A stretch of DNA of 24,367 bases from a virus: positions 1 to 24,367 of the IMG/VR virus record IMGVR_UViG_3300032304_000314, one strand, 5' to 3'. A program made the position numbers and the translations under genes. Under the pieces are notes generated by a model. That model was not told where the DNA came from. It was given only the letters and a program-made list of their open reading frames with translations, and made no database searches. Positions 6,856 to 21,347 of the stretch are shown here, piece after piece. Each line of letters opens with the position of its first letter. Position 1 is the first letter of the stretch.

Positions 6856-8856
6856 TTATCTTTTCTTTTTCTGTGTTAAAATCGAGTTCCAAGTATGTCT
6901 GCAAAATGGAAGATGAATGTCTGTACCTTTTATCGTCTGCCATCCTCCACGTTTGTTCCAAACATTGTACCCTACTCTTTTAGAAATAGTATCAATCTCT
7001 TTTCTGGTATAAACTTTATTGAGGTCTAAAAGTGCAGCGCAAAATTCTCTATTCTTACTATCTTTTGGCCCGACATATTTGTACTTAACTTCAAGACTTT
7101 TTATCTCATCAGCTATCCTATCTACTAAAGCCTTAGAAGGTCTTTTATTATTGATACTCCAAGCACCTTCAACTAATGATAGAACTGATGCCGCTCTTAA
7201 GGAATTGATAATGGTTTCAACTTGACTCTCTGTCAATCCTGTTTCTCTTGCTATGTTTGCTTTGGTAGAAATAGGGTTTTTCTTAACGTACTCTAAGACT
7301 TTATTCTCTTCTGGAGTATTGGCTTCGATTTCTGCAAATTTTTGCCTTCCCTCGTCTATCAATTCCAACTCAACTGATTCAAGTGTTCTTTCGAAAATCT
7401 CTACATCTTCGAACAACTGAACTGACCTTGAACTTAACTCGATAAAGTTATCTGCACTCTCGCCAAATTCGGCAAATACTTCGATGTCCTTTGTCCACTC
7501 TTTTGCAAAGGCGTTAACCTCTACACTTTCATCTGGCACTGCGTTAACAACTCCACCTAAGCCTATCATTGACCTTATCTCTTCTTGACTTAATGAACTT
7601 AAAACTTTGTTCGCAACTAATGGAGATAGCTTACCGATTTCTTCTGCAAGTTTTTGACCTTCTGTTTTTGTAACGTCTAAGATTGGTAAGCCTAAAATCT
7701 CTCTCAACTCATCATTAGTCGCTGCTTGTATCAATGCCGCCTCACTTAAAGTTGGCTCTGGCACGTCTAAAGTTTCAATCTCATAAGCATCTATCGAACC
7801 ATTTATAGCAGCGAAGTAATTAAACAATTCTTCAAAGTGTTGTTGGTCGGGCTTAATCTCGTTCAGGTCGAATAACTTGTAAGCATCCACCATCTCGGTT
7901 CTTCCACCGAGTTGACCTTCAGTTTTAATTCCTAAAAGCATAGGAGAAGTAACTCGATGTGCTACAAACAATTCTTCTTGAACCGTCTTATTTAATATAT
8001 CAAATTGCTTATCTAAGTCATTAGGCTGAATAGGAATCACATTCGGTGCTTTATCTGCTCCATCCGAAAAGTTTATAATCCATCTTCCTGCATTGTTAGT
8101 TCCTTGATGTTTGCGATTGATTCTTCTTACTAAATCTTTTTGCTCCTCATCGGTTGGAACTCCGTTATTAAAGTTCAGAATACCTCCAAAGAAAAATTCG
8201 TTCTGAATGTTTGCTCTGTGATAGTTTGCAATCTCTACGTCTACCTCAATGTAAGGAACTGCTGCAATGTAATCAGGCAAAGGATAAGTCTTAAGCGTTG
8301 GTCTATAATCTTTGCAGTAATAGAGTTGTAAACCTTTTCTTCTGTCTGAATTAAATGCGTTAAACTCTACAATGGTTTCTTTTTTATCTGCCCAATTATT
8401 TGAGTAGAAGAATTTAGAATTATCGACTGAACTACGAACCTTAGAAAAGTCAACGTGAAAAATCTTAGCAATCTTTTGACCTCCTCTATCCCAAATAATT
8501 TGAAGAGCGTAACCTCCGTACAATCTCTTATCTAATGCTAATTTTTTAAAGATGTCATTTAGACTTTCAAATTGATTTGGCTTCGATAATAATTGTTGAG
8601 CCTTTATCATTGAATCTAAGTTCTCGTCTTTTCTTACCTTTAATCCTTTTCCGTAAGTCCACTTTTGTTTTGCCGTCAAGATAGCGTTATGTTTTGCTGA
8701 ACGATTAAATAAATCACATAAGTATTGAGGATAGTTATTATCCTCGCCATAATTAACGTATTCGTTTCTTCTATCTTTAGTAAACAAAGGAATTTGGTAC
8801 GAACTCAAAGGTTCGGCACTAAATCCAATGCGTTGACTTGTCTTATAATCAGCCAT
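6856..8856 (-). CDS. Portal protein fused to a winged-helix module and a Mu gpF-like C-terminus
   Basis: The 666-residue protein has three parts. Residues 1 to about 400 resemble a phage portal: the entry has NAILTAKQKWTYGKGLKV, a middle with RLYGGYALQIIW, and a stem/wing part with VTSPMLLGIKTEGQLGGRTE. Residues about 516-566 look like a winged helix (ISTKANIARETGLTESQVETI, then a wing). Residues about 590-660 resemble the end of Mu gpF-like head morphogenesis proteins, with REFC at 603-606 and CRHTW at 652-656, a likely metal-binding pair of motifs. Portals form the 12-subunit ring for DNA entry. The fusion would carry the minor head protein with the ring. No separate Mu F gene is seen. Confidence 0.85.
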   Translation of the reverse strand: MADYKTSQRIGFSAEPLSSYQIPLFTKDRRNEYVNYGEDNNYPQYLCDLFNRSAKHNAILTAKQKWTYGKGLKVRKDENLDSMIKAQQLLSKPNQFESLNDIFKKLALDKRLYGGYALQIIWDRGGQKIAKIFHVDFSKVRSSVDNSKFFYSNNWADKKETIVEFNAFNSDRRKGLQLYYCKDYRPTLKTYPLPDYIAAVPYIEVDVEIANYHRANIQNEFFFGGILNFNNGVPTDEEQKDLVRRINRKHQGTNNAGRWIINFSDGADKAPNVIPIQPNDLDKQFDILNKTVQEELFVAHRVTSPMLLGIKTEGQLGGRTEMVDAYKLFDLNEIKPDQQHFEELFNYFAAINGSIDAYEIETLDVPEPTLSEAALIQAATNDELREILGLPILDVTKTEGQKLAEEIGKLSPLVANKVLSSLSQEEIRSMIGLGGVVNAVPDESVEVNAFAKEWTKDIEVFAEFGESADNFIELSSRSVQLFEDVEIFERTLESVELELIDEGRQKFAEIEANTPEENKVLEYVKKNPISTKANIARETGLTESQVETIINSLRAASVLSLVEGAWSINNKRPSKALVDRIADEIKSLEVKYKYVGPKDSKNREFCAALLDLNKVYTRKEIDTISKRVGYNVWNKRGGWQTIKGTDIHLPFCRHTWNSILTQKKKR

Positions 8857-9335: not shown

Positions 9336-9845
9336 CTAAACTCCTACTGTGATTGCATTTATCGAGGTCAATTGTTGAGCAGGGTTGGCTTCATTACCTA
9401 CTAAAGTAAGTGTTTGACCATTGAAATCTCCCATTGCACTACCTGATAAATGACTTCCTGCCGTAACTTCACATCCATAAACTTGTCCAAGTAACCAATA
9501 AGTTCCATCCTTTTTCTCAATTACAACTAAAGGCTTAGTTTGTGCAATTGCTTGAAACTTATTTCTGCTTGTTTGACTCATCTTAGGGAAGTTACCTACT
9601 ACCGTCTGTTGGTAGAAGATTGTTCCGTTTGCAGGATTAGATTGTATAGCTTCTTCAAATGAATCTGCACCTTGTGGCATTAATTCGTATTTGTAAAAAG
9701 TTACACCACTAACTAAGCTTACTCCACCACTTACGCTTGAGGTAATAGTTGAACCACTTACGCCTGTCGCTAAGTAAATGTTTTTAAGACCACCGACTGC
9801 ATCCTTGCAATCGATGGTAAATCCTGATGTTATTGCGCAAGGCAT
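9336..9845 (-). CDS. Putative major tail tube protein
   Basis: The 169-residue protein is beta-rich and contains FYKYELMPQGADSFEEAIQ, FYQQTVVGNFPKMSQTSRN and KKDGTYWLLGQVYG followed by GSAMGDFNGQTLTLVG. This pattern recurs in structural proteins encoded next to the capsid gene in Bacteroidota siphoviruses, where I consider a tail tube the best reading. It follows the capsid gene by six bases and precedes the terminator, as expected for a protein needed in hundreds of copies. Another virion role, such as head completion, is possible. Confidence 0.6.
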   Translation of the reverse strand: MPCAITSGFTIDCKDAVGGLKNIYLATGVSGSTITSSVSGGVSLVSGVTFYKYELMPQGADSFEEAIQSNPANGTIFYQQTVVGNFPKMSQTSRNKFQAIAQTKPLVVIEKKDGTYWLLGQVYGCEVTAGSHLSGSAMGDFNGQTLTLVGNEANPAQQLTSINAITVGV

Positions 9846-9851
9846 ATACTA

Positions 9852-10805
9852 CTAAGCTAAAGTGAATTTAACAATCTCGTTTGGTAAAGCAATCTGAACG
9901 CCTGCTTTAAATTCTACGTTCCAACGTACTTCCATAGCTTCAACTGCGTAGAACATTTCCCACTTGTACTCTTCATCAGCGATGTCGCAACCAAAGAATA
10001 AGTTAGAAGTTCTCATTGCAATAATTCTGTTAGTGCCATTTAAACCATTAACACCTACAACGGTCAAGTTAGTTCCCGGTATAACGATTTCAAAACTACC
10101 ATTGCTCGCATCAGTATTATAGTGAAACAAGTTAGCGTTTGTTAACGCCATTTGGTAGGCTCTGAATGTATTCATTCCTACGAAGATTCTTAAATCTTCT
10201 TTACCTAACAATTCAACAGGAATGGCTCTGTAAATACCTTGCATAATTGCGATAGCATTTGAAGGAGTAATTCCACCTGATACGCTATAAGGTGCGCCTG
10301 TCATAAAACCACTTACGTTAGCTTCGATAACTCCACTTGCTGCATCAATGATTTTTAAAGCACCATCGAACTTGTTTAAGTTACCATTACCAGATGAAGT
10401 GTTACCTTGCCAAAATGCAGTTTCTAATTGCTCTGCGATTAAGCCTGTTTTCAAAGTAGCATATTGCTCTTCGAATGGTACGGTCTTAGGATTTGAACCC
10501 GAAGGTAATAACAACTGAAGATACTTTGTTTCAAGGTCTTTAGGACACAATGCCTCTTGAACTTTAATAGGTGCTACGGTCATAGTTCTGTTTGAGAACA
10601 CGGTTGTACCACTTGCATTCCATCCGCAAGATGCTCCCGCTTGGAATACTGCATCAGTATCCATCACGTTTACTTGCATTGTAGATTTCACGTTTGGCAT
10701 CTTAGTTGCCAACTGAATAGATTTAGCGGTGAATAATGATTGAATCATTAACTCACGCTCGTTTGGTTTGGTGTAGGCTAATAAGCCTGTTACATTAAAT
10801 GCCAT
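9852..10805 (-). CDS. Major capsid protein
   Basis: The 317-residue protein begins MAFNVTGLLAYTKPNEREL, has an N-terminal arm, an internal stretch EEQYATLKTGLIAEQLETAFW, a later PVELLGKEDLRIFVGMNTF strand, and an end with EVRWNVEFKAGVQIALPN. This layout is typical of HK97-fold capsid proteins in Bacteroidota phages, without an obvious long cleavable delta domain in the same frame. The context is strong: the gene directly follows a scaffold-like protein and a prohead protease and precedes a tube-like gene. Codon use is rich in common codons, consistent with high expression. Confidence 0.8.
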   Translation of the reverse strand: MAFNVTGLLAYTKPNERELMIQSLFTAKSIQLATKMPNVKSTMQVNVMDTDAVFQAGASCGWNASGTTVFSNRTMTVAPIKVQEALCPKDLETKYLQLLLPSGSNPKTVPFEEQYATLKTGLIAEQLETAFWQGNTSSGNGNLNKFDGALKIIDAASGVIEANVSGFMTGAPYSVSGGITPSNAIAIMQGIYRAIPVELLGKEDLRIFVGMNTFRAYQMALTNANLFHYNTDASNGSFEIVIPGTNLTVVGVNGLNGTNRIIAMRTSNLFFGCDIADEEYKWEMFYAVEAMEVRWNVEFKAGVQIALPNEIVKFTLA

Positions 10806-10812
10806 AATTTTT

Positions 10813-11400
10813 TTATTTTTTGTTTAAAATTTTTGATACTTCTTCGATTGAATTGAACAAGTCAAGTTTTTTCTTATCCTTATTCTCTGGCTCAATCACT
10901 TCCACTTCTTCTGGTTCTCCGCTGATTTTTTCAACCACTTCAAACATTAATTTAAGACTTGTTTTTAAGGTGTCATTCTCTGCTTTCAAGGCTTCGAACT
11001 TAGCAACTAAAGTCTTAGCGGTACTATCTGCTTCAATAGCTTCAAGTCTTACCTCGATGCTTTTAACATCTTCTACTTTTGCAAAGTTCTCAATCTCGAT
11101 TTCAGTTTCTCCCTCGTCTTCTGCTTCTTCTTCTTTAGTCTTAACCTCAGTAATTAGTCCGTCTTGAGATACAATAACTCTGCCATCTTCAAGTTCGTGA
11201 GTTCCATCTGGTGCAGGAGTAACGCCTTCTTCAGATATCACATAAAGAGGTGAACCCATTGCAAGGTCTCCTTCCCATTTAACTATGGTAACGCCATCAC
11301 TTAGTTTGGCTTCATCCATCTTCACCTCAACTTTATCTTCTTCGAAAAGAATTTTCTTCAAAGCGGGTAGGTTTTTTTTGATTAAATCTTTCAATTCCAT
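10813..11400 (-). CDS. Scaffolding-like acidic coiled-coil protein
   Basis: The 195-residue protein is very acidic, with a Glu-rich middle (KTKEEEAEDEGETEIEIE), a helical coiled-coil region around 105-155 (EVRLEAIEADSTAKTLVAKF) and a lysine-rich helical C-terminus (EVSKILNKK). An N-terminal beta part has PLYVISEEGV and DGRVIVSQDGLI. Acidic coiled-coil proteins located between the prohead protease and the capsid gene act as internal scaffolds, and the protease would remove them. The call relies on composition and place. It ends seven bases before the capsid ATG. Confidence 0.7.
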   Translation of the reverse strand: MELKDLIKKNLPALKKILFEEDKVEVKMDEAKLSDGVTIVKWEGDLAMGSPLYVISEEGVTPAPDGTHELEDGRVIVSQDGLITEVKTKEEEAEDEGETEIEIENFAKVEDVKSIEVRLEAIEADSTAKTLVAKFEALKAENDTLKTSLKLMFEVVEKISGEPEEVEVIEPENKDKKKLDLFNSIEEVSKILNKK

Positions 11401-12557: not shown

Positions 12558-14240
12558 TTATTGAATTGTCGCTTTCGTTTTGATGCTATTTACCTTTTCT
12601 TGAGCGTTGGTGATGTCTGATTCAGTTACAAATACTCTTACCTTGCCGCCTTCGTTAGTTGTCCTTATTGGCTCTTCATTACCTAATCGAGTGAATGAAG
12701 ATGAAGGTCTGATAACAGGAGGAAGACTTGGAGTTCCACCGCCACCTCCACCGCCACTTGGTGCAGTTGGGTCGATTGAATTTATCTTCCTAACATTAGC
12801 TAAACCCGCTGCAACTATTCCCGCTACGGCAAATGCTTTGGCAACCGTTGGAAGTGTCTTATCTGCTAACACTTGGTTTGCTGCAAGGTAAGTATTAATT
12901 AAAGCATTGGCAGTCGCTAACGCTTTAGCCTCAACCGATTGTTCTTTCGCTAACATACTAAACCCCGCTAAAGCATCTCCAATAGCTGCAATAGTATCTA
13001 TTCTCGCTTGTGATTCTGCATTGAAAATAGCAACCTTTGCATCTGCCGCTTGTTGTGCTGAAATAACTCCTTTTTTATTTAGTTCGTCAATGGCTGCAAA
13101 TCGTTCTTGTTCAGATAATAGTTCATCGTCTTTGATAGATTTTAAATCCTCAATGTTAGCAGCGTACTCTTCACGGTCTGATTCGATTAAGGACTTTTTT
13201 CTTAGCCTATCGTTTTCTTCTTGTGCTTTTTCTTTTTCTCTTCTCTCTTTAGCCCGTTCTTCGTTATCTTTATCGAAGATTTCTTTTTTCTTTTTCGCTT
13301 CTTCTTCTGCCTTTAGCGCATCTTCTTTTTTCTTTTGTAAGTCGGCTATTGCTTTCTCTTCTTTAGCTTTTCTCTTCTCGTCTATGATTGCGCTTGCGTT
13401 ATTTATTTTCTCTCTCTTTTCTTCCAAGTTACCTAATGCTTGCACTCGCTTAGTGTAGTTTTCTTGAAGAGCCTTAAGTTCATCGTCTGCCGCATCATTT
13501 ACGTTATTTAAACTTTCGATAGTTGCACCTTTTTGAATAGCTAAGATTTGTTGATAAGTTGCCCCTGCCGCTTTTGCTTTCTGAACTAAGATTGCAGTCT
13601 CCTCTCTCTGGTTTCTTTTTAAGTCTTCTATTTGAAGGTTCTGAAGTCTTGTTGCTTCTTTGATTAATTCATTTGCCTCCTTCTCGCTGATAGATTTATT
13701 CTTAGCTTGCTTTAATAACTTGTCAATTTGAGCCTCATATTGGGCTTGCTTTAAATTAAATGCGCTAAGATTGTCTTCATAATCTCTTAACATCTTAGAG
13801 GCTTGTTCTGCGGCTGCGGCTTGTTCTCCTATTGCCTTAGTGCTGAACCCTAAACCTTGCGTAAAGTTATAAACTGCCGTTTGTAAGCCTCTAAAAGCAC
13901 CTCCTAACATCGCAAATTTATCAGTAATCAAATCAGCCAATGGAGCGAAGTCTTTAAAGATGGCATACAAAGCACCTAACGCTGCTACTACTGCGGTAAT
14001 AGCTATCCCGATTGGAGTTGCAATTAGTATTTTAAAACTATTGAATAAGTCTTTTACTCCTTTTGCCGCTTGACCTGCGCTGCCAGGAATATTATCGATT
14101 GATTTATCAAAGTCGTTTACTTGCTTTTTCGCTTCTTTAGCACTCTTGCCTGTCTTATCTAAACTCTTTTCGAGGTCGTTTAATTCGGCTTCGGAATTAC
14201 CCGTTTTAACTCCAATCGCAATTAAAATATCGTTTATCAT
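12558..14240 (-). CDS. Tape measure protein
   Basis: The 560-residue protein has the usual parts: an N-terminal segment (MINDILIAIGVKTG), a hydrophobic stretch at 71-95 with ATPIGIAITAVVAALGALYA, a long helical coiled-coil body rich in Lys, Glu and Ala (about 140-400), a C-terminal Ala-rich hydrophobic part with ATANALINTYLAANQ, a run of eight Gly near 495 and a short beta tail. Tape measures set tail length and enter the membrane on injection. At the usual 1.5 Angstrom per residue, the tail would be about 84 nm; this is short for a siphovirus and is inference. It overlaps the 32-residue gene before it by ATGA. Confidence 0.85.
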   Translation of the reverse strand: MINDILIAIGVKTGNSEAELNDLEKSLDKTGKSAKEAKKQVNDFDKSIDNIPGSAGQAAKGVKDLFNSFKILIATPIGIAITAVVAALGALYAIFKDFAPLADLITDKFAMLGGAFRGLQTAVYNFTQGLGFSTKAIGEQAAAAEQASKMLRDYEDNLSAFNLKQAQYEAQIDKLLKQAKNKSISEKEANELIKEATRLQNLQIEDLKRNQREETAILVQKAKAAGATYQQILAIQKGATIESLNNVNDAADDELKALQENYTKRVQALGNLEEKREKINNASAIIDEKRKAKEEKAIADLQKKKEDALKAEEEAKKKKEIFDKDNEERAKERREKEKAQEENDRLRKKSLIESDREEYAANIEDLKSIKDDELLSEQERFAAIDELNKKGVISAQQAADAKVAIFNAESQARIDTIAAIGDALAGFSMLAKEQSVEAKALATANALINTYLAANQVLADKTLPTVAKAFAVAGIVAAGLANVRKINSIDPTAPSGGGGGGGTPSLPPVIRPSSSFTRLGNEEPIRTTNEGGKVRVFVTESDITNAQEKVNSIKTKATIQ

Positions 14241-16972: not shown

Positions 16973-18153
16973 AATGACTGACGATAATTGTCAAAGGTAT
17001 ATTGAATGTTAATCACTAATGAAGTTGGGCGAGTTTCGTTTACCACCTTATTGATAGGGTAGTTTGTTTCCAAAATATTAACAGGGTAATAAGTGCTTCT
17101 ATCTACCTCAAGCATAACAACAGGACTAAGTATCAATTCTCTTAAACCTTCCCATTCGGCATCCGTAAGCAAGTCAGAGTTTAACTCGATGTTTTCACTA
17201 AACTTGGTAAAGTAGTTTGTTTTTAATCTATCTGTCTTAGCATAGTTAAGTTGTTGGAACTTCTTAAACTGCTTCCTCTCTATCTCGACTGATTCTTTAC
17301 TAACCTTAGTAAAGTTAAACGAATCAAATCCTCCTAAGTTGTTCAACCAATGAAGTCTATAAGTCTGGTACTTTGAGCAAGTCTTGTCGATATCGATTCG
17401 CCTTTTGTAAGCATCGAAATTCTCCCCTATGTAAAAGATATAGTAAGCTACGTTATCTAAGTTAGTAACTCCTAAAGCAGTCAATAAAGAATAGCCTACG
17501 TTTATACTTCTTATCCCTAACGTAATCGGTAACTCGGCAAAATTAGTATAAAGTTCTACATTAGATTCGTTGTATGTCTTAACTCCGACAAATTGAGTTG
17601 ATAAATTAGAGGTAAAAAAGGTCAAGAATCTTTGTTGGTTTTGTTTTATCTTATCAGTAAACGTAGTCTGATTTAATGCTTGGTCTACGTTTGTCCCTGC
17701 AAGTAACAACTGCTTAGAAGTAAATGCAGTTTTGCTCCAATCTAAGAAGTCAAAGATTGCGTTAGAACTATTCTTAGGAGTTCCACTTGTTCCGTATTGC
17801 GCTAAGTTTGGGTAAATCACAGGCACTCCGCTCACGTTATCGTATATCTCCCCGAATTGTAGCCAGAATTTTGCTACTGAGTTATTACAACTTAGCACCC
17901 CACTTACGTTAAATGAACCAAAGTCATAGGTAACGTAGTCTTTTATCACGTTAGCTACGTCTAAATTAATCGTTCCTACCCCTACTTGTTTAGGATAAGT
18001 CAACCTTGCAACGGGATTAGTCTGCCCGCTCACGTTCACGTCAACTAAAAACTGAAAGTTAGGTTGTGTAGAGTTATTCGAACTCACATTGAATACGATT
18101 TCATTATAGGCGTTCTGCCAATCGTTCGGACTTGTTATGAAAGTTATTGCCAT
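16969..18153 (-). CDS. Putative distal tail protein
   Basis: The 394-residue protein starts MAITFITSPNDWQNAYNEI and has a beta domain with ARLTYPKQVGVGTINLDVAN, then a middle with QLLLAGTNVDQALNQTTF and a C-terminal part with VMLEVDRSTYYPVNILETNY and SLVINIQYTFDN. From memory this is typical of tail-tip proteins in Bacteroidota siphoviruses that precede the large hub gene. I infer a distal tail or baseplate ring role from place and the strand-rich profile. It overlaps the gp10-like gene by 10 bases and the hub gene by ATGA. Confidence 0.6.
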   Translation of the reverse strand: MAITFITSPNDWQNAYNEIVFNVSSNNSTQPNFQFLVDVNVSGQTNPVARLTYPKQVGVGTINLDVANVIKDYVTYDFGSFNVSGVLSCNNSVAKFWLQFGEIYDNVSGVPVIYPNLAQYGTSGTPKNSSNAIFDFLDWSKTAFTSKQLLLAGTNVDQALNQTTFTDKIKQNQQRFLTFFTSNLSTQFVGVKTYNESNVELYTNFAELPITLGIRSINVGYSLLTALGVTNLDNVAYYIFYIGENFDAYKRRIDIDKTCSKYQTYRLHWLNNLGGFDSFNFTKVSKESVEIERKQFKKFQQLNYAKTDRLKTNYFTKFSENIELNSDLLTDAEWEGLRELILSPVVMLEVDRSTYYPVNILETNYPINKVVNETRPTSLVINIQYTFDNYRQSL

Positions 18154-18770
18154 TGTTTAATATTATTTGCCATCACCGTTACAATCTGTCTACCTAATGC
18201 TTGACTAAGTGCTTGTGCGTAATCGTTTATTACTTGCTCTGATATTGCGTTCTGAATAAATAAAGTCGGCTCGATACCTTTGCGTTTTATAGACACTCCC
18301 ATAGCGTAAGCCATTTTACTCTTCTCGTCTATCTGGGCTTTTTTTCTTTGGCTCTTAGTCAAGTCCCTTGTTTGCGAGTATCTCGATTCGATTGGGATTC
18401 CAACTTTACTAATCCACTTCATCAAAGACTTTTGAAAGTCTGGACTAACGGTTTCTTTTTTGAACGAGAATGGAGAGTTATATTTTCGTCTTGTTCCACT
18501 TACCCCTCTATCAACAAAGGCAGCGTAGTCGTTTCCGTTGATAACTACTAAATAGTTCTTCCCACGTTTGACGGTTGGAACTGCGATAATAGATTGAAGA
18601 AGTGTGCTGCTTGCGTTACTTGAATTAGCCTCGATTAAGTTAGACTTCATTACCTGACTAATGTTAGTAGCCAACTCGTAGAGGCTCTGCCCTATTGTGG
18701 TGTCAAAGCTAATCTCTTGCAAGCTACTCGCATCCGTTCCTAAGTTACCAAGTAATGATTTATAGTCCAT
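18144..18770 (-). CDS. HK97 gp10-like tail/neck protein
   Basis: The 208-residue protein contains YAAFVDRGVSGTRRKYNSPF, a motif close to the core of HK97 gp10-type tail components (the 'Y..yVE.Gt' pattern), and later MAYAMGVSIKRKGIEPTLFI, matching the usual C-terminal G-x-x-P-x-x-F pattern. These proteins join the tail to the neck. It starts 11 bases before the stop of the -1 frame of the chaperone-like gene, so translation is tightly linked to it. Confidence 0.7.
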   Translation of the reverse strand: MDYKSLLGNLGTDASSLQEISFDTTIGQSLYELATNISQVMKSNLIEANSSNASSTLLQSIIAVPTVKRGKNYLVVINGNDYAAFVDRGVSGTRRKYNSPFSFKKETVSPDFQKSLMKWISKVGIPIESRYSQTRDLTKSQRKKAQIDEKSKMAYAMGVSIKRKGIEPTLFIQNAISEQVINDYAQALSQALGRQIVTVMANNIKQWQ

Positions 18771-19430
18771 CTGCTTCGTCTATTTGAAAGGTAACTAAAT
18801 TTAAAAACTCAACAACTCCCATCTTAAAAAAGTAATCCCATTTAGTCTTATCTCCTCCTGCTAAATTATTTATTGTGGCAATCCATCCCCACTTTTTGTA
18901 GAAAGATTTAACTTCTCCAACTTGCCCATTAAATAGGTTGGGATAGCTTGAGATAATTTCTCTAAATAATTGCAAAAAAAAACCATTATCGGAGTAGCAT
19001 CTTTTAACTTCATCTTTAAAAGGTCTTTAGCCACTTCTTTATGGATTGAGCCATTATACAACCATTCGCCAAAGAACGATTTAACAGGGATGAGGAAAAT
19101 AGCTAAGATGTTATGTATCTCGTCTGCGGGTTCATCCTTCCCTGCAAAGTGTGCAAGGTCGATAAATTGGTCTGCACGAATTGAACTCAATCTTGTGTTT
19201 AGATAGTACCAATTCCACCCTACTCGATAGAACTTTGAAATCTTTGCTTTTGGTAGTGTATTTTCAGCATCCAATAATTCTTGATACAAAGCACCTAAGT
19301 CTTTTAACTTTTCGCTCGATGCGTTCGGGTAAACAAACATTAGCCTCTCAAGCCAATCTTCTTTGGGGATTTGGTTTAATTCGATAAACTTCCGTAACGT
19401 TAAATTAAAGTAAGCCTGTTTGATTCGCAT
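18760..19430 (-). CDS. Tail-assembly-chaperone-like protein, -1 frameshift product (223 residues)
   Basis: Two frames overlap at a run of nine T on the minus strand (18982-18974). Zero frame reads GTT TTT TTT TGC and ends at 18870 (186 residues). Slipping back one base on T-TTT-TTT joins 152 residues to a 71-residue extension that ends at 18760 and contains KKWGWIATINNLAGGDKTKW. The extension has no ATG of its own at its start, only TTG inside the T run. The N-part has LTLRKFIELNQI, RADQFIDLAHFAG and LAIFLIPV, a pattern I associate with proteins upstream of tape measures in Bacteroidota phages. Short/long products from one slip are the hallmark of lambda G/GT-type tail chaperones. A sequencing or mutational indel in the T run is the main alternative. 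Confidence 0.6.
18870..19430 (-). CDS. Tail-assembly-chaperone-like protein, zero-frame product (186 residues)
   Basis: This is the product when ribosomes do not slip at 18982-18974. It shares its first 152 residues with the frameshift product and adds a 34-residue end beginning CNYLEKLSQAIPTYLMGKLE. That end is itself plausible as a helix, so both products may be made, as for gpG in lambda-like tails. The start is the ATG at 19430, 16 bases after the stop of the terminase large subunit. Confidence 0.65.
   Translation of the reverse strand: MRIKQAYFNLTLRKFIELNQIPKEDWLERLMFVYPNASSEKLKDLGALYQELLDAENTLPKAKISKFYRVGWNWYYLNTRLSSIRADQFIDLAHFAGKDEPADEIHNILAIFLIPVKSFFGEWLYNGSIHKEVAKDLLKMKLKDATPIMVFFCNYLEKLSQAIPTYLMGKLEKLNLSTKSGDGLPQ
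18974..18982 (-). promoter_or_regulatory. Probable -1 ribosomal slippery site (nine T)
   Basis: On the mRNA the site is G-GUU-UUU-UUU-UGC, which contains the heptamer U-UUU-UUU of the X-XXY-YYZ type in the correct frame. Both tRNAs can re-pair fully after a -1 slip. A weak stem (CCAAC with GTTGG, 18917-18941) lies about 32 bases downstream; it is too weak and distant to count as a firm stimulator. Confidence 0.55.
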
Positions 19431-19446
19431 AATCTAAAATATAAAA

Positions 19447-20607
19447 CTACCCTCTCATAGTAACATACTTGCCTTTTCGATTCTCGTTTAGCTTCATTAG
19501 TGCAAGGTAGCGTAGTGCGTCTATTAAGTGATTGTTAAAGTCGATAGGCTCGTTAATTAATTTACCTGCCTTGTCTTGCTTCCATTTGTAGGTCTTGAAC
19601 TCTCTGGTCAAGTTTGAGCCAATTAAAACTATCTTAAATCTTCGTAAGATGTCGATTGAGTTGAGAATCGAATCCTTGCCTTTTTGAGTTGGTTTAATGT
19701 TCCATCCCATTCGATAGACTTCCTCTATTGATTTTGGCTCGGCACTATCAGCAAAGAACTCATCCCTATTTGTGGCAAAGTCTTTTAGTCTTGAACTTAT
19801 GTCTTGGTTGGTTAGTCCTCTCTCGTAAAGGTGTTCTTTGACATATAGAGTATCATCTCTCTTCCAAACTCCTACGACTGCACTTGGGTCGTTTGTGAAT
19901 CCCCAATCTAATCCGAACCCGATAAACTTTGCACCTTCGGGAATTACAACTCCTTCACTCCAATTGTTGAAGACTAAACCTACTAATTGCCCTCTTTGCC
20001 CTAAACCAAATATCTTCCAATACTCAGGGTCTACGGATGCTAAATTTTCTATCTCCCTCTTAAGCGAATCGGGTAAGTGTGGATTGTCCTTATAAGTTGT
20101 GATGAGTAGTCCTGCATCCTCTCTTGGGATTACTTGGTCGTAAATCCAATGCTCAAAGTCTGAAGGGTTGTAGTCGATTATTATCTTGCCCGTTGTCCTT
20201 AAAACTAATTGCCTCCAATCTTCCAACTCAAGTTCGTTTCCTTCGTTGCAGAATAGCACGTTCCTCTTTCGACCTCGTATCTTTTGCGCATCATCGGTAC
20301 TGAAGAATTCAATTAGATTCCCATTAAGTGTATAGGTGTTCTCGCTCTTGTTATGGTATTTTTCTTCGTACAAACCCACCTCTTTAAGTATCTCAAAGAA
20401 ATCACGCATTGCACTTGTCTTGAGTGCGGGTAAAGTCTTACGGACTATCGAGTACGTCAAACCTTTGTAAGTAGTTGCAGTTCGAATAATCCATTGTAAG
20501 GCAGAAAAAGTCTTCCCAGACCTTGCACCGCCTTGTAAGACTGCAATACGTTTGCCTTGATTCTTAAAGCTATCTTCTATGAATACTAAGTTAGGGTTGA
20601 ACTTCAT
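19447..20607 (-). CDS. terL: Terminase large subunit
   Basis: The ATG at 20607 is used; a TTG two codons upstream is less likely. The 386-residue protein has a Walker A motif GGARSGKT (26-33), a Walker B-like NVLFCNEGNE with catalytic Glu122 (here with Asn in place of the usual Asp), and the nuclease residues Asp234 in GLDWGFTNDPSA, Asp287 in FADSAEP and Asp363 in NHLIDALRY. The ATPase drives DNA into the prohead and the RNase H-like nuclease cuts the concatemer. The set matches the Terminase_3/XtmB type. It overlaps the lipoprotein gene by 17 bases. Confidence 0.95.
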   Translation of the reverse strand: MKFNPNLVFIEDSFKNQGKRIAVLQGGARSGKTFSALQWIIRTATTYKGLTYSIVRKTLPALKTSAMRDFFEILKEVGLYEEKYHNKSENTYTLNGNLIEFFSTDDAQKIRGRKRNVLFCNEGNELELEDWRQLVLRTTGKIIIDYNPSDFEHWIYDQVIPREDAGLLITTYKDNPHLPDSLKREIENLASVDPEYWKIFGLGQRGQLVGLVFNNWSEGVVIPEGAKFIGFGLDWGFTNDPSAVVGVWKRDDTLYVKEHLYERGLTNQDISSRLKDFATNRDEFFADSAEPKSIEEVYRMGWNIKPTQKGKDSILNSIDILRRFKIVLIGSNLTREFKTYKWKQDKAGKLINEPIDFNNHLIDALRYLALMKLNENRKGKYVTMRG

Positions 20608-20908
20608 AAACAACTTTCACTTGCCCAAAATTTTCAAAGGTTGTATCTTTAATCAATTCTTTAAAAACAGATATTTTAACTAAATCTCTGTCCCACGAAC
20701 CTAATGCGCTTAACTCAACCTTTTTGCCTACTTTCCAATAAAACAAAGCAGGAGTTAGAACTTGTACATTGTCAACTAAAACGTAATTGCGTGAAGAGTA
20801 TATCTCAACTCTAACCATATTGCAATGTTCTTCATCTGCTTTTTTGCAAGCGAAATTTATTTGAATGGCGGTAAGTAGGATTAATATCCTGAGTAATTGG
20901 TTATTCAT
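20591..20908 (-). CDS. Small lipoprotein between terminase subunits
   Basis: I choose the ATG at 20908 (MNNQLLRILILLTAIQ), which lies 19 bases after the small-subunit stop; an upstream extension would overlap that gene and bury the signal peptide. The 105-residue product has a hydrophobic signal core and then FACKKADEEHC, where the first Cys is a probable lipid site followed by Lys and acidic residues, as in Bacteroidota lipoproteins sent to the surface. The lipobox (INFAC) is not canonical. The rest is beta-like (VRVEIYSSRNYVLVDNVQVL). Its role may be superinfection exclusion, since phage lipoproteins often block receptors, but that is inference. Confidence 0.6.
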   Translation of the reverse strand: MNNQLLRILILLTAIQINFACKKADEEHCNMVRVEIYSSRNYVLVDNVQVLTPALFYWKVGKKVELSALGSWDRDLVKISVFKELIKDTTFENFGQVKVVYEVQP

Positions 20909-20927: not shown

Positions 20928-21347
20928 TTATTTAATTTCTCCTTTGAGCCAATCTGGCGCATCACTTATCTCAACTTTGGTTTCGGTCTTCTCTGTTAGT
21001 CCGTTAAGGCGTTGAGTGATAGATGGATTGTAATTACCAAGCAGTCCTCCTGTTATTTGGTCTTGTCTGATTTCTTTCTTCACTTGCGAACAGATAGGTA
21101 AAAAGTCATCATAATAGCCTTGCACATTTTTAAAATAGCTATCAATTTGTCCTACCGTATTGTAGCAATAAACTTCAAAACCTTCTAATGTTAGAGGTAA
21201 CTTAGGATAATCTACTACTCTGTTTCCATCTTTACCTACATATTGTACTTTAGGCCATTTCTTAGCTTCTTCTATTAAGGATTCTTTGTACTCTTTAAAC
21301 TTATCATAAAGTTCTTCTGGAGTTTTAAATATTCTTTTAGGATGCAT
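20928..21347 (-). CDS. terS: Terminase small subunit
   Basis: The 139-residue protein has a helical N-terminus (FKTPEELYDKFKEYKESL), then LPLTLEGFEVYCYNTVGQID, where the first part is typical of the helix-turn-helix of P22 gp3-like small terminases, then FLPICSQVKKEIRQDQITGG, GLLGNYNPSITQRLNGL and a polar end. The pattern 'LTLEG...D...GGLLGNYNPSI...LNGL' is known from small terminases that bind pac or cos DNA and hand it to the large subunit. It is the second gene upstream of terL. Confidence 0.85.
   Translation of the reverse strand: MHPKRIFKTPEELYDKFKEYKESLIEEAKKWPKVQYVGKDGNRVVDYPKLPLTLEGFEVYCYNTVGQIDSYFKNVQGYYDDFLPICSQVKKEIRQDQITGGLLGNYNPSITQRLNGLTEKTETKVEISDAPDWLKGEIK

What the first reader, a model, noticed from the sequence alone, without database searches (positions are those of the whole stretch)
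18760..19430. Probable programmed -1 frameshift making a tail-chaperone pair
Two overlapping frames meet at a nine-T run (18982-18974) that contains a canonical U-UUU-UUU slip heptamer in the right frame. The second frame has no credible start of its own, yet its product (with KKWGWIATINNLAGGDK) looks like a real folded extension, and its stop is coupled to the next start. In lambda-like phages tail chaperones are made as a short and a long form in exactly this way. Here the gene lies about 4.6 kb upstream of the tape measure rather than next to it.
Basis: partly seen in the sequence, partly recalled or inferred. Interest (0 to 1): 0.75.

Follow-up and report, generated by a model that had tools for sequence, protein, structure and literature searches.

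The report
Frameshifted tail-chaperone gene in Bacteroidota phages
A phage gene carries a conserved run of nine T's at which a fraction of reads slip back one base, so the gene makes a short and a longer protein; the same trick is kept in more than 160 related phage sequences and most likely supplies the two forms of a tail-building helper protein that had no known function before.

Summary
On the minus strand a 186-codon ORF (19430-18870) runs through nine T's (18982-18974) that hold an in-frame T_TTT_TTT (18981-18975). The -1 frame stays open to 18760 and gives a 223-aa fusion (152 + 71 aa). Sequencing error is excluded: all 17 close relatives have the same nine T's. A scan that did not look at the T-run found 118 diverged loci; all have T9 or T10 at the junction and 117 have both frames in register. 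Two cultured Nonlabens phages also have T9. In a probable sister clade, 47 of 47 complete loci have T7, T8 or T9, always with the first T at codon position 3, which is the ribosomal -1 heptamer. In the overlap, selection acts on the -1 frame (345 synonymous / 96 non-synonymous pairwise differences) and not on the 0-frame tail (54 / 386). Two loci encode both domains in one frame. The tail-chaperone role is inferred from architecture, neighbouring tail genes and a weak fold match to the HK97 chaperone; no known chaperone family matches by sequence. The gene follows the large terminase, 4.5 kb from the tape measure, a conserved order. RNA polymerase slippage is not excluded for the window's clade.

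The parts
18975..19430 (-). N-domain, common to short and long product (152 aa, MRIKQ...PIMVFF)
   Evidence: confident AlphaFold2 model pLDDT 89; relatives belong to phrog_32199, unknown function
18974..18982 (-). nine-T run
   Evidence: identical in 17/17 close relatives; T9/T10 in 118/118 distant loci
18975..18981 (-). in-frame slip heptamer T_TTT_TTT
   Evidence: in-frame heptamer in 118/118 and 47/47 loci
18870..18974 (-). 0-frame tail of the short product (34 codons plus stop); not under protein selection
18760..18975 (-). -1 frame C-domain (71 codons plus stop; LQLFREII...KKWGW...LAGGDKTKW...), completes the 223-aa long product
   Evidence: helical model pLDDT 79
18144..18770 (-). next gene, 208 aa (phrog_29822, unknown); its ATG overlaps the -1 stop by 11 nt
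19447..20613 (-). terminase large subunit, directly upstream
12558..14240 (-). tape measure protein, presumed client of the chaperone
   Evidence: phrog_1538 / phrog_3336, E 9e-7 and 4e-6

Best explanation
The gene makes two proteins from one start. Most ribosomes read to 18870 and give a 186-aa short form. A minority slip back one base on U_UUU_UUU (18981-18975), where both tRNA-Phe can re-pair, and continue in the -1 frame to 18760, giving a 223-aa form with a helical KWGW...LA..D domain. By analogy with lambda gpG/gpGT, the short form would coat the tape measure protein and the rare long form would recruit the tail-tube subunit. Shown here: slip site, two conserved frames, selection on the -1 frame, conserved gene order. 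Inferred: that slippage occurs in cells, its rate, that the ribosome rather than RNA polymerase slips, and the chaperone role.
For: Nine T and both frames kept in 17/17 close relatives from independent samples. A scan for the C-domain only gives 118 loci (55 clusters below 60% N-domain identity), all with in-frame T_TTT_TTT inside T9/T10, although 26% of other Phe codons in the N-domain are TTC. Cultured Nonlabens phages P12024L and P12024S have T9. The probable sister clade has T7 (38), T8 (6), T9 (3), always starting at codon position 3, as ribosomal -1 slippage predicts. In the overlap, pairwise codon differences are 345 syn / 96 non in the -1 frame against 54 / 386 in the 0 frame. One-frame fusions L163 and L151, plus two 260-267 aa BFVD proteins that match both models, show that the two domains form one chain. 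Gene order terminase - this gene - ... - tape measure is kept. The N-domain's best solved-structure alignment is the HK97 tail assembly chaperone 2ob9.
Against: No peptide or expression data. No conserved downstream stem-loop. The fold match is weak (Z 2.3, 67 residues) and no known chaperone family matches by sequence. In the window's clade the run is never shorter than nine, more than a ribosomal heptamer needs. The gene is not next to the tape measure. Homology of the T7 clade rests on the C-domain (E about 1e-5 per genome) and the shared junction; its N-domain does not align significantly.
Confidence: 0.8

Rival explanations
1. Transcriptional slippage: RNA polymerase slips on the nine or ten T's and adds a U to part of the mRNAs; ordinary translation of those gives the long form.
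For: All 118 loci of the window's clade have at least nine T whatever the codon phase (phases 0, 1 and 2 all occur). Bacterial RNA polymerase slips efficiently on nine A or T (review PMC5009743). No stimulatory RNA structure is conserved. Dysgonomonas sp. 520 has one copy with T9 (split frames) and one with T10 (one frame), and sisters L069/L076 differ by one T.
Against: The sister clade keeps only seven T's in 38 of 47 loci, always starting at codon position 3, which points to the ribosome. In phase (9,1) the two extra T's follow partly from the V/I/L and Y/C codons on either side.
Confidence: 0.17
2. Sequencing or assembly error, or a recent frameshift mutation in a normally single-frame gene.
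For: Homopolymers are error-prone; one-frame relatives exist (L151, L163).
Against: The same run in 17 close and 118 distant loci and in two cultured phages; always the same direction of shift; the 0-frame tail is open but unconstrained.
Confidence: 0.01
3. A real -1 frameshift pair, but the protein is another morphogenesis or packaging factor (for example acting with the terminase beside it) and not a tail chaperone.
For: The gene follows the large terminase and is not beside the tape measure. No sequence match to known chaperones.
Against: The short/long architecture with the shift near the 3' end is typical of tail chaperones. The genes that follow are tail-type genes leading to the tape measure. 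The best solved-structure alignment is the HK97 tail chaperone, although weak.
Confidence: 0.15

Closest known systems
Phage lambda gpG / gpGT tail assembly chaperones (and analogues described by Xu, Hendrix and Duda 2004)
   Same: One start, short form plus -1 extended form; shift near the 3' end; small extension domain; no separate start for the extension; encoded among structural genes that include the tape measure.
   Different: Slip site is all U (T7 to T10) and not lambda-type G_GGA_AAG (that heptamer from memory); gene lies directly after the large terminase and 4.5 kb from the tape measure; no detectable sequence homology; no conserved RNA stimulator seen.
HK97 tail assembly chaperone, PDB 2ob9
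   Same: Best solved-structure alignment of the N-domain model (Z 2.3, rmsd 4.0, 67 residues).
   Different: 3% identity, only part of the model aligned, Z in the range of chance for helical proteins.
phrog_32199 and Nonlabens phages P12024L/S gene pairs P12024L_40/41 and P12024S_38/39
   Same: Same N-domain family (46 of 50 members of the alignment match phrog_32199), same T9 junction, same place after the terminase.
   Different: Annotated as two separate hypothetical proteins; the frameshift is not annotated.
Thermus thermophilus dnaX slippage on nine T's
   Same: Nine-T run giving products in two frames (PMC5009743).
   Different: There RNA polymerase slips; here the seven-T sister clade points to the ribosome.

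Membership tests
lambda-type G/GT frameshift tail-chaperone pair | Two overlapping frames joined by a conserved slippery heptamer, extension without its own start | tested here: met
lambda-type G/GT frameshift tail-chaperone pair | Extension is a selected protein domain | tested here: met
   -1 frame 345 syn / 96 non against 0 frame 54 / 386 in the overlap; C-domain conserved in 118 loci
lambda-type G/GT frameshift tail-chaperone pair | Gene directly upstream of the tape measure gene (usual, not strictly required) | tested here: not met
   Three genes and 4.5 kb lie between; the same in relatives, where the gene follows the terminase
lambda-type G/GT frameshift tail-chaperone pair | Sequence or fold homology to known tail chaperones | tested here: inconclusive
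   No PHROG, Pfam or PDB sequence match to a known chaperone; 2ob9 best in structure but Z 2.3
lambda-type G/GT frameshift tail-chaperone pair | Short form binds the tape measure, long form binds the tail-tube protein, neither is in the virion | not testable with these tools
   needs pull-down and virion proteomics
ribosomal -1 frameshifting | X_XXY_YYZ heptamer in the correct phase | tested here: met
   118/118 and 47/47 complete loci; exact phase with only seven T's in the sister clade
ribosomal -1 frameshifting | Downstream stem-loop or pseudoknot stimulator | tested here: inconclusive
   No excess folding stability within about 230 nt downstream (mean z -0.3 in the T9 clade and -0.65 in the T7 clade for the first 70 nt); pseudoknots were not tested
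transcriptional slippage | Long A/T homopolymer (about nine or more) | tested here: met
   T9/T10 in the window's clade, but only T7 in most of the sister clade
transcriptional slippage | mRNAs of differing length at the run | not testable with these tools
   no transcript reads available

The most novel reading that the evidence does not exclude
In the T9/T10 clade the long chaperone is made mainly, or jointly, by RNA polymerase slippage, while the seven-T sister clade uses the ribosome: one phage gene family that moved between the two ways of frameshifting, as dnaX did between bacteria.
Probability: 0.2. Interest if true: 0.65.

Novelty: new variant of a known kind. Interest (0 to 1): 0.45.

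Why it matters
It gives a likely function to a phage family listed as unknown (phrog_32199) and adds its missing second half, in Bacteroidota phages where tail genes are poorly annotated. The C-domain plus an in-frame U_UUU_UUU can serve as an annotation rule. Paired clades with T7 and with T9/T10 in the same gene allow a direct test of ribosomal against transcriptional slippage. No earlier report was found in the open-access library searched, which is not a full literature search.

Tried and rejected
tblastn of both window frames against cultured phages: no match. Pfam, PHROGs and PDB sequence searches with the N- and C-domains: only unknown or chance families. Foldseek against the PDB: nothing significant for the N-domain, no chains for the C-domain. 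Downstream RNA structure: none. Alignment A5, meant for a full-length fusion model, misaligned N rows onto the C-domain and was not used. Flavobacterium phage 6H gp10, a weak structural match, ends in CFFYSTR, but its -1 frame meets a stop at once, so no pair is claimed. Sequencing error rejected on conservation. Hits with the KWGW pattern in unrelated genomes (L146, L149, L150, L152-L154) are chance matches without the gene pair.

Full report
The window is a 24.4-kb virus record. Its structural genes run on the minus strand: terminase small (20928-21347, phrog_606) and large subunit (19447-20613), the gene in question, a 208-aa gene, a 394-aa gene, an 878-aa gene, the tape measure (12558-14240), a head-protease-like protein, the capsid-region protein (9852-10805), the portal (6856-8856) and an endolysin.

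Check of the observation. The 0 frame reads ATG GTT TTT TTT TGC across nine T's (18982-18974) and ends at 18870. The -1 frame continues TTG CAA TTA TTT AGA and ends at 18760, overlapping the ATG of the next gene at 18770. The predicted products are 186 aa (21.7 kDa) and 223 aa (26.1 kDa). In 17 of 17 close relatives with the full region (82-95% identity to the N-domain) the nine T's and both frames are identical in layout. This rules out a read error.

Selection. Among 15 distinct close sequences the overlap varies mainly at the third position of the -1 codons (10 of 17 variable sites), which is the second position of the 0-frame codons. Summed over pairs, codon differences in the overlap are 345 synonymous and 96 non-synonymous in the -1 frame, but 54 and 386 in the 0 frame. 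After the 0-frame stop the -1 frame shows 619 and 56. Pairs share ancestry, so these sums are not independent events. The -1 product is the selected one, and the 34-residue 0-frame tail looks passive.

Distant relatives of the same clade. A DNA pattern for the C-domain motif KWGW...LA..D, which says nothing about the T-run, found about 119 loci in IMG/VR. In all 118 loci that contain the junction there is a run of nine (95) or ten (23) T's where a 0-frame ORF, in most open for about 160-190 codons upstream, meets the -1 frame. All hold an in-frame T_TTT_TTT. The one locus out of register is L076, which has one T fewer than its sister L069. The set is diverse: 55 clusters below 60% and 14 below 40% N-domain identity. 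Elsewhere in the N-domains 26% of Phe codons are TTC. Other T>=9 runs are rare on the coding strand (33 in 1.01 Mb) and nearly all lie between genes. Cultured Nonlabens phages P12024L and P12024S have the same T9 junction, annotated as two hypothetical proteins.

Sister clade. A profile of the C-domain found weak matches (E about 1e-5 per genome) in Bacteroidota genomes. Their -1 frame begins at CA TTTTTTT A. A second pattern scan gave 48 viral contigs, some with IMG isolate-type identifiers. In all 47 with the junction the run starts at codon position 3 and has seven (38), eight (6) or nine (3) T's. An invariant nnT_TTT_TTT in one exact phase is the signature of ribosomal -1 slippage, and seven T's is short for RNA polymerase. 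The relation of this clade to the window rests on the C-domain and the junction; the N-domains do not align significantly (hhalign P 0.02).

One-frame relatives. L163 encodes N- and C-domain in one 247-aa frame (profile E 6.5e-6 and 5.6e-8 in a single-sequence test). Dysgonomonas sp. 520 carries two copies, one with T9 and split frames (L147) and one with T10 and a single 251-aa frame (L151). Two BFVD proteins of 260 and 267 aa match both domain models. The two domains therefore belong to one chain.

Protein identity. The N-domain models well (pLDDT 89). It matches many uncharacterised phage proteins in BFVD, and its relatives match phrog_32199 of unknown function (46 of 50 members; the window's own protein scores no family on its own). 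Its best solved-structure alignment is the HK97 tail assembly chaperone 2ob9, but with Z 2.3, which alone proves nothing. The C-domain is a small helical domain (pLDDT 79) without clear matches.

Gene order. In relatives the gene follows the large terminase, and about 4.5-5 kb of tail-type genes lead to a putative tape measure.

Mechanism. Ribosomal -1 slippage on U_UUU_UUU is the common denominator of all split loci and the best-supported mechanism. In the window's clade the run is never below nine whatever the codon phase, and no stimulatory RNA structure was found, so RNA polymerase slippage, known for nine A or T (PMC5009743), may contribute. Sequence data cannot separate the two here.

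Verdict. The recoding site is real (about 0.97). Ribosomal slippage is the main mechanism (about 0.8). A tail-chaperone function is likely (about 0.8) and inferred.

Noticed in passing
L147 and L151 (Dysgonomonas sp. 520): Two prophage-like copies of the gene in one genome, one with T9 and split frames, one with T10 and a single frame coding both domains; run-length change or assembly difference.
   Followed up: partly
L069 and L076, T-run: Sister loci differ by one T (10 against 9), which puts L076 out of register for a -1 shift; may be an assembly error or real run-length variation.
   Followed up: no
about 510-610 nt upstream of the slip site in L054, L063, L077, L090, L097, L100, L107, L111, L120, L132, L136 and others: Many relatives have a T9/T10 run just before the chaperone gene, placed like an intrinsic terminator, so the gene may start its own transcript.
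   Followed up: no
Flavobacterium phage 6H, NC_021867 10352-10927 (L167): gp10 is a weak structural match to the N-domain and ends at T_TTT_TTC, but its -1 frame stops at once; a different recoding or no recoding.
   Followed up: partly
window 11372-11379: A-run of eight in coding sense near the start of the 195-aa gene (10813-11400); possible slippery site, conservation not examined.
   Followed up: no
window 9336-9845 and 9852-10805: Candidate tail-tube (phrog_19091, unknown) and capsid-region (phrog_11320, unknown; weak phrog_1623 virion structural) proteins lie together downstream of the protease, far from the tape measure and the chaperone.
   Followed up: no
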